In this document: positions 2,806 through 25,748 of the stretch, piece after piece
How the letters are laid out: the number at the start of each line of letters is the position of its first letter
How positions within the stretch are numbered: the stretch's first letter is position 1
Origin: Lutibacter sp.
Lineage (GTDB): Bacteria; Bacteroidota; Bacteroidia; Flavobacteriales; Flavobacteriaceae
Length of the DNA stretch: 32,532 nt
NCBI GenBank assembly: GCA_030656195.1
Contig: JAUSOJ010000305.1
Span: 1-32,532 of the forward strand
Direction of reading: 5' to 3'
Position numbers and translations under genes: made by a program
The notes under the pieces: generated by a model
The model's database searches: none
Seen by the model: only the letters and a program-made list of their open reading frames with translations
Told to the model about the DNA's origin: nothing

Positions 2806-3378
2806 ATGAAATACTTATTTACGCTATTATTTGCAATTTTTATTATTTCTAATTCGATTGCACAAACGCAAAAAGCGAATATCAATACTTCTCGTTCAAA
2901 TATTAAAAAGGGATTAAATAACCCAGCCGACAGTTTGCAGCAAAAAGCGAATATCAATACTTCTCGGTCAAATACTAAAGGGGGTTTAAACAAGCCAGCC
3001 GATAGTTCGCAGCAAAATAAAGGTTATGATGCGTCTCATAGACTAACAAGAGGCACTAGTTCTTCTATCAAAAGTGATGAAAGAAACACAACCGACAGTC
3101 TGCAGCAAAAAGCGAATCACAACACTGCCAGAAGCAACAAAAGTACAGTTAAAGGTGATGGAGGAAGTCCAGCCGACAGTTTGCAGCAAAAAGCGAATAT
3201 CAACACTTCACGGTCAAATTCTAAAGGGGGATTAAACAAGCCTGCCGACAGTCTGCAACAAAAAGCAAACATCAATACTTCTCGGTCAAATATTAAAGGG
3301 GGATTAAACAAGCCAGCCGACAGTCTGCAACAAAAAGCAAACATCAATACTTCTCGGTCAAATATTAAAAAGAATTAA
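2806..3378 (+). CDS. Secreted protein of 24-residue tandem repeats, function unknown
   Basis: A 190-residue protein I do not recognise. Residues 1-20 form a signal peptide ending SIAQ. The rest is almost entirely repeats of a unit like QKANINTSRSNIKGGLNKPA followed by DSLQ (24 residues, 72 bp). Units 1, 2, 5 and 6 are nearly identical, units 3 and 4 are longer and diverged, and a final partial unit ends SNIKKN. The composition (Lys, Asn, Ser, Ala, Gln; no Cys, few aromatics) suggests an extended or disordered basic protein. No catalytic motif or sorting domain is visible. The unit sequences are also close at DNA level, which predicts copy-number change by slippage or recombination. It has its own promoter box and ends at a bidirectional terminator that originally separated it from convergent glnS. 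Confidence 0.75.
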   Translation: MKYLFTLLFAIFIISNSIAQTQKANINTSRSNIKKGLNNPADSLQQKANINTSRSNTKGGLNKPADSSQQNKGYDASHRLTRGTSSSIKSDERNTTDSLQQKANHNTARSNKSTVKGDGGSPADSLQQKANINTSRSNSKGGLNKPADSLQQKANINTSRSNIKGGLNKPADSLQQKANINTSRSNIKKN

Positions 3379-6462: not shown

Positions 6463-6495
6463 ACTTCCGTCTTCTGACTTCGGACTTCTGACTTT
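6463..6495 (+). repeat. Short direct repeat (CTTCTGACTT) upstream of folB
   Basis: CTTCTGACTT occurs twice, ten bases apart, within a run of ACTTC-like units. Similar low-complexity units are common in flavobacterial intergenic DNA. Confidence 0.5.
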
Positions 6496-6525: not shown

Positions 6526-6882
6526 ATGGGAATTATAAAGTTAAAAAATATACGGGTTTACGCCTATCACGGCTGTTTGCTTGAAGAAGGAAAAATTGGT
6601 TCCGATTATCGTGTGGATGTTTCTGTAAATGCAAATTTAAACTTATCGGCACAAAGCGATAACCTTACAGATACGGTAGATTATGTTCATTTAAACAAAA
6701 TTGTGAAACAGGAAATGGCCATCCGTTCCAAATTGTTGGAAACGGTGGTGAAACGCATTTTGGACCGGATTTTTTTGGAAATTCCTTTGGTTGAAGAAGC
6801 TGTTGTTGCCGTTTCAAAAATAAATCCGCCCATTGGAGGCAATGTGGCGATGGTGACCGTTGAGATGCGTAAAGTGAAATAG
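6526..6882 (+). CDS. folB: Dihydroneopterin aldolase
   Basis: Converts 7,8-dihydroneopterin to 6-hydroxymethyl-dihydropterin plus glycolaldehyde in folate synthesis. At 118 residues it has the usual family length. The opening IKLKNIRVYAYHGCLLEE holds the conserved YxxHG and the active-site Glu region. AVVAVSKINPPIGG near residue 100 carries the conserved Lys and the Pro-rich turn. It stands alone on the plus strand, divergent from glnS, between two copies of the two-hairpin element (A and B). The start is supported by a promoter box 17 bases upstream. Confidence 0.93.
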   Translation: MGIIKLKNIRVYAYHGCLLEEGKIGSDYRVDVSVNANLNLSAQSDNLTDTVDYVHLNKIVKQEMAIRSKLLETVVKRILDRIFLEIPLVEEAVVAVSKINPPIGGNVAMVTVEMRKVK

Positions 6883-21191: not shown

Positions 21192-22547
21192 TTAAAATCC
21201 TAAAATGATTTTTGCGATCCAAAAATAAATTAAAATCCCGAAAATATCGTTGCTTGTGGTGATAAAAGGCCCTGTTGCCAATGCCGGGTCGATGCCTCTT
21301 TTGTCTAAAATGATTGGGACAAAAGTGCCAATTATAGAGGCGATTATGATTACCGAAACCAAAGATATGGCAACGGTTAAGCCAACTTTTATGTTGAAAC
21401 CTAAAAAGAACATCCCTGCCGACATTAATAGCGCCGCAAGCACCAATCCGTTTAACAAGCTTAATGAAACTTCTTTGATCAATCTTTTCCACCAAGAACC
21501 TCTTAAACTGTCGTTTGCCAAACCTTGGAGGACAATTGCGGAAGATTGTACGCCAACGTTTCCGGCCATTGCCGCAATTAAAGGGGTAAAAAAGAACAAT
21601 TCTTTGTATTTCACCATAGCGGCTGAGAATCCGCCCAAGATGGAAACACTCACAAATCCGCCAAAAAGCGCTAAAATTAGCCAGGGCAAACGCGCTTTTG
21701 TCAATTCCCAAATGGTATCATCAGCTTCCACATCCTGTGAAATCCCTGCAGCCATTTGGTAATCTTTTTCCGCTTCATCTTTAATAACGTCAACAATATC
21801 ATCAATGGTGATTCTTCCCACCAAACGGCCAGCTTTATCCACCACCGGAATGGCTTCTAAATCGTATTTTTGCATAATTCTTGCCACATCTTCGGCCTTA
21901 TCGTCAACGTGCACAAAATCCACTTTTTTGATAAAAATGTCTTTGATGGCGGTTCTTGTTGAGGTTGTCAATAAATCTTTTAAAGACAATCGGCCTTTTA
22001 AAATGTCATGGTCATCAACCACATAGATGGAATGTACGCGCGACACTTCTTCAGCCTGGGCGCGCATTTCTTTAACGCAGGTAAGCACATTCCAATTTTC
22101 ATTGACTTTGATAAGCTCTTTCGCCATTAACCCGCCGGCAGAATTTTCATCGTACCGCAAAAGATCCCGAATGTCCTTGGCGTGCTCTTCATCTTCAATA
22201 TGGGAAATTACTTCTTCCTGTTGTTTGTTGGTAAGTTCCGCAATAATATCGGCAGCATCATCGGTGTCCAATTCCGAAATTTCTTCCGCAATCTCTTTGG
22301 ATGAAAGTCCGCCCAAGATTTTTTCACGGGTATCTTCATCCAATTCGGTAATCACATCAGATGTTACATCGCTATCCAGTAATTTTATTAAATAGATGCC
22401 TTCCTCAATGGTTAAATCCTCGATAATTTCAGCAATGTCGGCATAATGCACTTCAGCCAATTGCTTTAAAATCGACTCATTGTTGCCGTCAGCAATTAAT
22501 TCCTGAATTTCTTGGATGTAACCTTTTGTTATTTCAAACGGCATCAT
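21192..22547 (-). CDS. mgtE: Magnesium transporter MgtE
   Basis: A 451-residue Mg2+ channel of the inner membrane. The N-terminal superhelical domain spans residues 1-125 and is very acidic, with [14 protein letters not shown]-like repeats. Two CBS domains cover about 130-255, including [20 protein letters not shown]. Five hydrophobic helices follow in about 285-451, including [14 protein letters not shown]. The acidic CBS and N domains normally sense cytosolic Mg2+ and close the pore. It is the last gene of the DUF4286-rsmA-mgtE cluster; its start overlaps the rsmA stop by 14 bases. Confidence 0.95.
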
Positions 22548-23310
22548 TTTCTATTTTAGCGGTCAGACTTATAAATTCTTGAACGGATAATTGTTCCGGA
22601 CGTTTGGCAAAGATAGGGTCTTCTCTTAAATTATCGGATAAATTGAGCGTTTTTAAACTGTTACGCATGGTTTTTCTGCGCTGGTTGAAAGCGGTTTTAA
22701 CAACGGTATAGAACAATTTTTCGTTCACCGGCAAGGTGAAATTTTCTTTTCGGGTGAGCCTGATTACGCCAGAATCCACTTTTGGCGGCGGATTGAAAAC
22801 TGTGGGCGGCACCGTAAATAAATATTCCACATCGTAAAAGGCCTGCGTTAACACGGATAAAATTCCGTACACTTTGCTGCCTTCTTTTTCAGCGATGCGC
22901 TTGGCGACTTCTTTTTGGAACATGCCTGAAAATTCAGGAATTTGATGTCGGTTTTCCAGTGTTTTAAACACAATTTGCGTGGAAATATTGTAGGGAAAGT
23001 TGCCTATTATTGCCACTTGTTCTTCCCCAAAATAATCGGAAATGTTAATTTTTAAAAAGTCTTTTGAAATAATTCTGTCGGCCAGGTTTAAATAGTTTGC
23101 TTTCAAATATTCCACCGACTCTGTGTCAATTTCAATCACGTGCACAACCAAGTCTTTTTTAAGGATATACTTGGTTAAAACACCCATTCCCGGACCAATT
23201 TCCAAGACGGTTTTATAGCCTTTTTCGGTTAGGCTGTCGGCAATATTTTGCGCTATCTGCTCGTCTTTCAGAAAATGTTGTCCAAGGTGTTTTTTTGCTC
23301 TTACACTCAT
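22534..23310 (-). CDS. rsmA: 16S rRNA dimethyladenosine transferase RsmA (KsgA)
   Basis: Dimethylates two adjacent adenines in the 3' hairpin of 16S rRNA during 30S maturation. It is 258 residues long. The SAM-binding motif is [16 protein letters not shown], followed by VIEIDTESV. The catalytic motif is [11 protein letters not shown] (the N-x-P-Y type). KVDSGVIRL and [13 protein letters not shown] are conserved in the C-terminal part. It begins after [13 protein letters not shown], the usual family opening. It lies 4 bases after the DUF4286 gene and overlaps mgtE, so the three are co-transcribed. Confidence 0.97.
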
Positions 23311-23314
23311 AAAA

Positions 23315-23647
23315 TTAGTTTTTCACGCTCATGCTAAATTGCTCGCTGATTATTTTTAATTCGGTTCTGAAAGCAACAAATTTACCACTAAAAAGTTTGG
23401 TAGCTTCGTCGCGCAATCTTGCGGCGTCTTCTTTATAATATTCCTGTAAAGTTGCCAAACTTTCGGTGGTATATTGCACAGAGTAGGTTGTGCCGCCCAT
23501 TTCTTCCTCAATCATCACCTGGCTCATTTTGGCGTAGCTGAATTTTCCGGTTGAAAGCATATCGGGAATGTGTTTTTCTTTCATCCATTGCAACCATTCA
23601 TCGTGGATGGATTCTTCTATATTTGTGGTAACGCTGTAGATGTACAT
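23315..23647 (-). CDS. DUF4286 family protein
   Basis: A 110-residue cytoplasmic protein of the Bacteroidota DUF4286 family. It has the family opening [20 protein letters not shown] with [16 protein letters not shown] and [18 protein letters not shown]. The fold is probably a dimeric alpha/beta barrel, by analogy. Its function is not known. It is the first gene before rsmA and mgtE. Its start codon lies 3 bases from a 119-bp heptamer repeat array that fills the position of its leader and ribosome binding region. Confidence 0.88.
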
Positions 23648-23650
23648 ATT

Positions 23651-23769
23651 AAAAGTTAGATATTAGATATTAGATATTAAAAGTTAAAAGTTAAAAGTTA
23701 AATGTTAAAAGTTAAAAGTTAAATGTTAAATGTTAAATGATAAATGTTAAATGTTAAATGTTAAATGTT
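23651..23769. repeat. Heptamer tandem array, 17 units
   Basis: Parses without gaps into 17 seven-base units: AAAAGTT (6), AGATATT (3), AAATGTT (7) and AAATGAT (1). It ends 3 bases from the DUF4286 start on the minus strand. The seven-base period is kept throughout while the units vary. Confidence 0.92.
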
Positions 23770-23827
23770 AAAAGAAAAATAACTGCTAAAGATAAAAAAT
23801 ATCTTTCTTAAGTGACTCTTTCAAACT

Positions 23828-23846
23828 CCCTTTCCTTAGGAAAGGG
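23828..23846 (-). terminator. Hairpin downstream of the TPR gene
   Basis: CCCTTTCC-TTA-GGAAAGGG lies 23 bases beyond the stop of the TPR gene on the minus strand. There is no good T-run, so it may be a weak terminator or a dispersed palindrome. Confidence 0.5.
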
Positions 23847-23869
23847 CTGGGGATAGGATTTGCTTTTTC

Positions 23870-25645
23870 CTAATTCACCTCATCGCCCCGCAGTTTCCTG
23901 AATTTTTTCCGGGCATCCACCACATAAATGCTCGATGGATAGTCAAATATCATTTTTTGATAATATTCTTTGGCTTTTTCCGGACGGTTTAATTTGTTTA
24001 AATACAATTCGGCCAGATAATAATGGGCGTCATCGGCCAAAATATCATCTTTATTTAGGCTGATAATTTGTAAATAGTTGTTTTCAGCATTTGTAAACTG
24101 ATTTATTTTTTCAAACAATTGCGCTTGTTTAAAGAGCGCTTCATCTTCAATAGGATGACCTTTATATTGGTTCAAAACAAATTGCAAGGTATCAATGGCC
24201 TGCTGATTTTTGTTCTGATAGGAAAGCAAATCGGCAACGGCATATTTTTTCAAGGCTATTTTTAAACTGTCTTTTACGGCATTGTCTGTAATCAACAAAT
24301 TTAACGCCAAAGCATCGTTGGCGATGAGTTGCGAGGTAGAGTTTTTCAATACGCTGAGCTGCGATTGTGCCCATTCAAAATCGCCTTTAAAATAGGATGT
24401 TTGCGCAATTTTAAACCGCGCCGTTTGTCCGATCGGCTGATTTTTTAAATCGTTTTGAACTTGGGTATAATAAATTAAGGCGCTGCTGAATTTGTTTTCA
24501 AATACCAAAATATCAGCCAATTTTGTTTTTAAATACCCTTTTTGAAATTCGTTAACGGGCAATTTTAGCGCTTCTTTCAACACTGAAATCGCTTGTTCTG
24601 ATTCGTTTTTTTTGAAAGCCAAAAATTCTGCATAAATGGATTGAATACTCAAAGTGGCCACGTTTTTACCATATTGTTTAAACAATTGCTGAAATTGAAT
24701 TTCAACGGTTTCAACTGGGGCGTTTGTTTTCATATTTACTTCAAGCAAATACAATTTGGCAAGCAATTCAGTTTCTAAATTTGGCGAATTTTCCAGCACA
24801 TAGTGGAAACAGTTTTTTGTGGCTTCAAAATCGTTGTTTTCAAAAGTGATTTTTCCTAAATTTAGGATGCCGTTTAAATTGCCCACATTTCTTTTGTGCA
24901 GTGCTTTTTCCTGAATTAGTGCTTTATCGTATTCTTTTTGTTGGATAAAAAGCCAGCTCAACAATTCATTCCAGCTCTTATTCGGATTGTTTTGTGATCG
25001 TTTTAACAGGAGTTTTCTCAGTAAAATATTGGATTCACTTTCAGCATCCTCCGTAATAAATCTTCCGATATAACTTTTCGCAACCGATTCGTAATTTTCA
25101 TTTGTTTCAATCAGGTCCAGGTAGGTGTTGAACATATTTTCAATTTCCCCTTTTTCACTATAAATTAAAGCGATTTGAAAGTTGTAATTGGCATTCGGAT
25201 TCATGGCCATCGCTTTTTTGTAGGCAAGCAGGGCATAGTCCAACAGGAAATTGTCGTGAAAAGTTTTGGCGACCACATAACCCAATGCCGGCGATTTATC
25301 TATTGAAAGCAAGGCTTTTTCATAATATGGAGCGGCTTTGTCGGGAAAATTTTGCAATTGTTCGTTGTAGCCTAATTCCACATACAAATACTCTTGATTT
25401 GGGTAGCTTTTTAATTGTTTCACCACAATTTGAGTCACTTCCTCAAATTTTTCCAACTGTTGATAGCAATCAATTAATGCGTTTAAATAATTGGCGTTAT
25501 AGGGATTTTTTTCAAACAGCGTTTTGTAGAGTGAAGCCGCTTTTTCATACTCGCCATTTCTAAAATACTGCGATGCCAGTTGCGGTTCCTGTGCATAAAT
25601 TTGCAGGGAAAAGCAACAGACAAACAAGATTAAAGCGTTGCGCAT
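23870..25645 (-). CDS. Secreted/periplasmic TPR protein
   Basis: About 591 residues. I choose the ATG at 25645 (MRNALILFVCCFSLQIYAQE), which gives a clean signal peptide; the longer track ORF starts upstream inside the promoter. After the signal nearly the whole protein is helical tetratricopeptide repeats with patterns such as GEYEKAASLYKTLFEKNPYN, NFQIALIYSEKGEIENMF and DDAHYYLAELYLNKLNRPEK. There is no enzyme domain. Proteins of this type act as assembly or scaffold factors in the envelope, but no partner is named by context. It is a single-gene unit between the rsmA cluster and serS. Confidence 0.85.
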   Translation of the reverse strand: MRNALILFVCCFSLQIYAQEPQLASQYFRNGEYEKAASLYKTLFEKNPYNANYLNALIDCYQQLEKFEEVTQIVVKQLKSYPNQEYLYVELGYNEQLQNFPDKAAPYYEKALLSIDKSPALGYVVAKTFHDNFLLDYALLAYKKAMAMNPNANYNFQIALIYSEKGEIENMFNTYLDLIETNENYESVAKSYIGRFITEDAESESNILLRKLLLKRSQNNPNKSWNELLSWLFIQQKEYDKALIQEKALHKRNVGNLNGILNLGKITFENNDFEATKNCFHYVLENSPNLETELLAKLYLLEVNMKTNAPVETVEIQFQQLFKQYGKNVATLSIQSIYAEFLAFKKNESEQAISVLKEALKLPVNEFQKGYLKTKLADILVFENKFSSALIYYTQVQNDLKNQPIGQTARFKIAQTSYFKGDFEWAQSQLSVLKNSTSQLIANDALALNLLITDNAVKDSLKIALKKYAVADLLSYQNKNQQAIDTLQFVLNQYKGHPIEDEALFKQAQLFEKINQFTNAENNYLQIISLNKDDILADDAHYYLAELYLNKLNRPEKAKEYYQKMIFDYPSSIYVVDARKKFRKLRGDEVN

Positions 25646-25665
25646 AAGGCGATTTTTACATTTCT

Positions 25666-25673
25666 CAAAGATA
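25666..25673 (-). promoter_or_regulatory. -7 box (TATCTTTG) of the TPR gene
   Basis: Matches TAnnTTTG on the minus strand, 20 bases before the chosen ATG at 25645. It supports that start. Confidence 0.55.
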
Positions 25674-25748
25674 ACCAAACAAGTGTTAAAGTTTTAATAA
25701 ATAAAGCTGTTTTCACAAAAGCGCTGTTGCAAATTTACCCGTAAAAAG

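What the first reader, a model, noticed from the sequence alone, without database searches (positions are those of the whole stretch)
23647..23769. A 17-unit heptamer array occupies the leader of the DUF4286-rsmA-mgtE operon
119 bases parse perfectly into seven-base units with four variants, and the array ends 3 bases from the start codon. Units are gained or lost in steps of 7, so the array could tune transcription or translation of an operon encoding the KsgA-type rRNA methylase and a magnesium channel. The nearest TAnnTTTG-like box (TATCTTTA) is on the far side at 23787-23794, so the array would be transcribed as leader.
Basis: partly seen in the sequence, partly recalled or inferred. Interest (0 to 1): 0.5.

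Follow-up and report, generated by a model that had tools for sequence, protein, structure and literature searches.

The report
Genome-wide heptamer satellite in Lutibacter
The 17 seven-base repeats in front of this operon are one copy of a repeat family scattered through the gaps between genes in one branch of the bacterial genus Lutibacter, usually placed after stop codons and often followed by a palindromic repeat, so they look like expanding filler DNA rather than a dial built for this operon.

Summary
In detail: window 23649-23767 is 17 exact heptamers in four variants (TTAAATG x7, TTAAAAG x6, TTAGATA x3, ATAAATG x1), one base from the DUF4286 start. The reading "leader of a DUF4286-rsmA-mgtE operon" is only partly supported. 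The window is a Lutibacter MAG. The same array family occurs on about 40 contigs of this genome and in 17 of 38 Lutibacter genomes, mostly one subclade, but is no more common than a reversed control elsewhere in Bacteroidota. Of 139 arrays in five genomes 138 are intergenic; most of those touching a gene start right after a stop codon (30 within 10 bp, against 5 at starts), with TTAAAAG reading away from the gene. In the window the array is the left module of a composite: array, ~50-bp spacer, palindrome AAACTCCCTTTCC-TTAG-GGAAAGGGCTGGGGATAGGATT, an order that is nearly constant elsewhere. The proposed TATCTTTA promoter lies in that repeated spacer. In several array-free relatives the upstream TPR gene sits 7-14 bp from DUF4286, so the array probably interrupts an older gene run. 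Unit number at the orthologous site ranges from 0 to ~50. Best explanation: a slippage-driven heptamer satellite coupled to a dispersed REP-like palindrome; any regulatory effect is incidental.

The parts
23649..23767 (+). 17-unit heptamer array (TTAAATG x7, TTAAAAG x6, TTAGATA x3, ATAAATG x1); the G-strand reads away from DUF4286
23768..23772 (+). partial 18th unit (TTAAA), tail of the array
23773..23822 (+). repeated spacer, type A (..TAAAGATAARAAATATYTT..); seven other copies of this type aligned in own and related genomes
23787..23794 (-).
23823..23860 (+). dispersed palindrome P (AAACTCCCTTTCC-TTAG-GGAAAGGGCTGGGGATAGGATT); 23 exact-core copies in the genome
23315..23647 (-). DUF4286 gene whose start codon abuts the array
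22534..23310 (-). rsmA/ksgA (RrnaAD)
21192..22547 (-). mgtE
23870..25678 (-). TPR-repeat gene upstream and co-directional; 7-14 bp from DUF4286 in several array-free relatives

Best explanation
The array is one copy of a lineage-specific intergenic heptamer satellite. Short TTAAAAG-type seeds, often forming the left end of a composite repeat (heptamers, spacer, palindrome P), sit between genes, mostly directly after stop codons. Shown by comparison: unit number at the same site changes between species, in whole 7-bp units where flanks are conserved. Inferred: the change comes from replication slippage or unequal recombination with a strong preference for 7-bp steps, and the composite spreads like a REP/MITE-type non-autonomous repeat and persists because it is nearly neutral in untranslated DNA. 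In the window the composite lies in reverse orientation between the TPR gene and DUF4286 of an older gene run. There it adds a hairpin and a largely unstructured A/U-rich stretch upstream of the start; an effect on downstream translation is possible but incidental.
For: Dispersed family: 44 blastn matches in G000 on about 40 contigs; 95 pattern matches against 0 for the reversed pattern. 138 of 139 arrays intergenic in five genomes; head nearer a gene edge 74 against 13, within 10 bp 35 (30 stop, 5 start) against 1 (own genome alone 25:4 and 12:0). Composite order nearly fixed: a 7-periodic run within 100 bp upstream of P in 24 of 44 copies, downstream in 1 of 44; in array-blind own DNA 3 of 10 against 0 of 10. 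P and arrays occur in the same genomes: 12 of 12 P-bearing against 5 of 26 P-free, Fisher p 2.3e-6 ignoring phylogeny. Unit number varies at orthologous sites while flanks stay alike. At the site the composite lies between the stop codon and a terminator-like hairpin in close species and is absent in the others. In array-blind DNA 11 arrays of period 7 against 1 of all other periods from 4 to 13.
Against: No mobilising enzyme is linked to P: the two Y1 transposases in the genome are flanked by other palindromes, and no clean target-site duplication was demonstrated. Array and P also occur apart, so the composite may be two repeats that prefer the same neighbourhood. Single TTAAAAG words show a weaker form of the same polarity (115:55), so part of the polarity may be sequence context at gene ends. 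Unit counts come from MAGs; 10 sampled arrays lie at or near contig ends.
Confidence: 0.72

Rival explanations
1. Expression rheostat: the array in the DUF4286 5' region tunes transcription or translation of DUF4286-rsmA-mgtE by unit number, as heptamers do for H. influenzae hmw1A.
For: Adjacent to the start codon; unit number varies strongly between relatives. The array part of the RNA is unpaired in the centroid fold, and A at -3 fits Flavobacterium initiation (PMC6847099). A distant Lutibacter (L104) has about seven units at the same position.
Against: Most family members that touch a gene follow stop codons. Downstream genes here are housekeeping rather than surface antigens. In several relatives the gap is 7-14 bp and co-directional, so this is probably not the operon's promoter region. 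The promoter-like box is repeat-borne.
Confidence: 0.12
2. Post-transcriptional regulator sites, as proposed by MacGregor for TAACTGA heptamers in Beggiatoaceae: each unit (sense strand TAACTTT/TAACATT) binds an S1-, Csp- or Csr-like protein.
For: Same unit length, same TAAC start in the sense orientation, same place just upstream of a start codon (PMC4679880).
Against: The exact TAACTGA dimer is absent in 950 kb of these genomes. Most gene-adjacent arrays lie after stop codons, where the mRNA carries the opposite strand (UUAAAAG).
Confidence: 0.08
3. Telomerase-like or DRT10-type reverse transcriptase adds the tandem repeats.
For: Tandem short repeats of fixed length with a polar start; DRT10 makes tandem-repeat cDNA (PMC12632851).
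Against: No RVT_1 match in the 99.7% complete genome although the controls ring; units are degenerate within arrays; the main DRT10 system in the paper makes 9-nt repeats.
Confidence: 0.02
4. Insertion hotspot: the heptamer array is a preferred target (after AAAG/GAAG) for palindromic elements such as P and CCTGCCTGCCGGCAG, so the composite is secondary.
For: Spacer B joins directly after -AAAG or -CCGAAG in many aligned copies. In G034 the palindrome CCTGCCTGCCGGCAG splits an array after AAAG. Two arrays with near-identical left flanks have different tail modules (L261 against L298).
Against: Order and spacing (mostly 33-50 bp) to P are strikingly constant and P is almost never on the other side.
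Confidence: 0.2

Closest known systems
Intergenic TAACTGA heptamer direct repeats (MacGregor 2015, PMC4679880)
   Same: Seven-base direct repeats between genes, dispersed in one lineage, often close to start codons; long arrays and other heptamers also reported in Bacteroidetes (Gramella, A. sublithincola, Elizabethkingia)
   Different: Unit is TTAAAAG/TTAAATG (sense TAACTTT), mostly after stop codons, degenerate units, coupled to a palindrome; no TAACTGA dimers found here
Long simple sequence repeats with heptamer predominance (Mrazek 2007, as cited in PMC4679880)
   Same: Heptamers are the favoured unit length; slippage proposed
   Different: Here almost exclusively one related unit family, with dispersed copies at dozens of sites
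Haemophilus hmw1A promoter heptamers (ATCTTTC)n (PMC8262952)
   Same: Heptamer array upstream of a gene with variable unit number
   Different: The hmw array lies between two promoters of an adhesin and expression dependence was measured; here a family of many sites, housekeeping genes, no expression data
REP elements (GTAG- or CGTC-tagged palindromes, PMC3733652)
   Same: P is a short (38 bp) dispersed extragenic palindrome in many copies
   Different: No GTAG/CGTC tag, no linked RAYT found, tied to a heptamer array on one side

Membership tests
Intergenic heptamer direct repeats (TAACTGA type, MacGregor) | unit TAACTGA in tandem | tested here: not met
   0 TAACTGA dimers in 950 kb of own and related loci
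Intergenic heptamer direct repeats (TAACTGA type, MacGregor) | majority within a few nt upstream of a start codon, forward orientation | tested here: not met
   Within 10 bp: 30 at stops, 5 at starts; the window copy itself is at a start
Heptamer long simple sequence repeats / intergenic satellite | tandem 7-bp units, intergenic, unit number variable | tested here: met
Contingency (phase-variation) locus, hmw type | unit number variable between related genomes | tested here: met
   between species only, not within a population
Contingency (phase-variation) locus, hmw type | unit number changes expression of the adjacent gene | not testable with these tools
   needs reporters or RNA-seq
REP element (GTAG/CGTC) | 20-40 bp dispersed extragenic palindrome | tested here: met
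   P, 38 bp, 23 exact-core copies in G000, hairpin in the predicted fold
REP element (GTAG/CGTC) | GTAG or CGTC tag at one end | tested here: not met
   P consensus has neither (definition)
REP element (GTAG/CGTC) | RAYT gene flanked by the palindrome | tested here: not met
   both Y1_Tnp genes are flanked by other palindromes
DRT10 / telomerase-like repeat synthesis | reverse transcriptase gene | tested here: not met
   no RVT_1 in G000

The most novel reading that the evidence does not exclude
Array, spacer and palindrome form one non-autonomous mobile unit of a new kind, which inserts with its heptamer end at gene ends and grows its own heptamer tail by a mechanism with a 7-nt ruler that also makes the unrelated-looking heptamers (ACCGAAG, CTCAAAG, GTTGAAT) in the same genomes.
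Probability: 0.15. Interest if true: 0.65.

Novelty: new variant of a known kind. Interest (0 to 1): 0.36.

Why it matters
If the composite reading holds, a subclade of the genus Lutibacter carries dozens of expanding seven-base arrays between its genes, at a defined polarity to gene ends. That gives a natural series for asking why seven bases is the favoured step of bacterial tandem repeats, and a caution against reading single arrays as promoter rheostats. It may also explain some assembly breaks: ten sampled arrays lie at or near contig ends.

Tried and rejected
Telomerase/DRT10-like origin: no reverse transcriptase in the genome. Y1/RAYT transposase as mobiliser of P: two genes found, both with other flanking palindromes. 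Known RNA family in the gap: no Rfam match above chance. RNA structure of the leader as a whole: not more stable than shuffles (z -0.28), apart from the P hairpin. Phylum-wide spread of this unit: outside the own genome 11 of 296 sampled genomes have the pattern, while about 7-8 genomes have the reversed control, so not above background. P outside the genus: only partial matches, mostly single. Two regex searches for P failed through my own pattern errors and were replaced by nhmmer.

Full report
Observation. The array is real and as described: 23649-23767 is 17 seven-base units of four types, beginning one base from the DUF4286 start codon at 23645-23647. Nothing else in the window shows a comparable period at the same threshold.

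Where it comes from. The RsmA protein is 84-98% identical to those of many Lutibacter and related Flavobacteriaceae MAGs and isolates, so the window is most likely a Lutibacter MAG. Its genome is 2.9 Mb in 336 contigs, 99.7% complete.

It is a genome-wide family. The array matches 44 places on about 40 contigs (only 40 candidates were scored, so a lower bound). A three-unit pattern has 95 matches against none for the reversed pattern. In the genus 17 of 38 genomes carry it, some with 60-100 pattern matches (overlapping matches in one array counted separately), others with none. In one search the thirteen genomes with the closest copies of a marker protein (86-100% identity) are all array-bearing, so it is largely a subclade trait; most of the more distant members, the L. 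flavus type strain included, lack arrays at the window's site. In a phylum sample it is at background.

Place and polarity. I fetched 120 stretches around array hits from five genomes and called genes with a codon model. 138 of 139 arrays are intergenic. Taking the TTAAAAG strand, its 5' end ('head') is nearer to a gene edge than its 3' end in 74 of 87 cases; within 10 bp there are 35 heads (30 at stop codons, 5 at start codons) and 1 tail. The own genome alone gives 25:4 and 12:0. Some of these are the same site in two species, so the nominal p-values overstate the case. Single TTAAAAG words lean the same way, 115:55, so part of the polarity is a property of gene ends or of decayed arrays. 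The window copy belongs to the minority at a start codon.

Composite. After the array tail many loci share a spacer and then a palindrome, AAACTCCCTTTCC-TTAG-GGAAAGGGCTGGGGATAGGATT (P). Of 44 well-matched P copies, 24 have a 7-periodic run within 100 bp upstream and 1 downstream; in array-blind own DNA 3 of 10 against 0 of 10. Distances between array and P are mostly 33-50 bp. The box is therefore repeat-borne. In the window's copy the nearest TTTG upstream of it is about 27 bp away by my reading, outside the usual 17-23 bp for Bacteroidetes (own knowledge). P has 23 exact-core copies in this genome and occurs in 12 genus genomes, all of them array-bearing. Some P loops hold further palindromes.

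The site itself. In three array-free relatives the upstream TPR gene ends 7 (L089), 14 (L090) or 9 (L094) bp before DUF4286 on the same strand; in the window's subclade the gap is mostly 107-493 bp (55 in L088). I infer that TPR-DUF4286-rsmA-mgtE is the older arrangement and that the repeats were inserted into it. Array length at the site: window 17, L079 about 8, L081 8, L082 about 50, L083 and L085 a few imperfect units, L084, L087 and L088 none, distant L104 about 7. The closest relative (L079, TPR 98% identical) lacks P altogether and carries other repeats instead, so the gap is a fast-changing mosaic.

Other sites. At a second site the array directly after a stop codon has 4, 1+4, 2 and 2 units in G000, G034, G032 and G022 and is absent in the other species listed; in G034 it is split by an inserted palindrome. 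At a third site array, spacer and palindrome sit directly after the stop codon in the same four species, ahead of a terminator-like hairpin where that is visible. So arrays persist through speciation while unit number moves in steps of seven.

Seven-base step. In 0.93 Mb of stretches not chosen for arrays (own sample partly chosen for P), 11 arrays of period 7 were found and 1 of all other periods from 4 to 13. Different heptamers (TTAAAAG, TTAGAAG, ACCGAAG, CTCAAAG) pass into each other inside one array (L062, L292), which suggests one evolving family rather than separate origins.

Mechanism. Best supported: slippage or unequal recombination on heptamer seeds, dispersed with a REP-like palindrome and tolerated in untranslated DNA. 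Shown: dispersal, placement, composite order, unit variation. Inferred: slippage, mobility, near-neutrality. An effect on DUF4286 translation is possible, since the array RNA is unpaired in the predicted centroid fold and A at -3 fits Flavobacterium initiation (PMC6847099), but nothing shows it is selected.

Comparison with known systems. Intergenic heptamer repeats have been described in Beggiatoaceae, Cyanobacteria and a few Bacteroidetes (MacGregor 2015, PMC4679880), heptamer predominance among long simple repeats was noted earlier (cited there), and a heptamer family is known in Chloroflexus (PMC6749651). The present family differs in unit, in lying mainly after stop codons, and in being tied to a palindrome. 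It is a new variant of a known kind. P fails two defining features of GTAG/CGTC REPs (tag, linked RAYT) and should be called REP-like only.

Noticed in passing
window 6463-6494: Second, degenerate heptamer array (ACTTCCG/ACTTCTG type) about 30 bp before a small ORF at 6526; its units belong to the TCAGAAG/ACCGAAG branch of the same heptamer family.
   Followed up: partly
window 2806-3378: Small secreted-looking protein (190 aa, signal-peptide-like start) with 24-residue repeats (..ADSLQQKANINTSRSNxKGGLNKP..) encoded by 72-bp tandem repeats.
   Followed up: no
L324 1300-2080 (G000 C178): Y1/RAYT-like transposase gene flanked by palindromes of the kind GAAGTC..GACTTC; the palindrome resembles the ACCGAAG/GGAAGTC heptamers found in arrays of these genomes.
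   Followed up: no
L039, L052, L221, L222, L281, L285: Loop of palindrome P replaced by further palindromes (TCCCGATAGCTATCGGGA, CCTGTCCCG..CGGGAGG, CCTGCCTGCCGCGGCAGG): palindromes nested in palindromes.
   Followed up: no
L084, L086, L087, L376, L378: Another dispersed palindrome, GGACAGGTCGCGACCTGTCC, sits in the same kind of intergenic gaps in related Lutibacter genomes.
   Followed up: no
L258, L285, L055, L046: By the gene calls some heptamer arrays run 10-19 bases into the 3' end of the coding sequence, which would change the last residues of the protein.
   Followed up: no
G031 C145:5703-5915: Four P palindromes in a row spaced exactly 60 bp apart.
   Followed up: no
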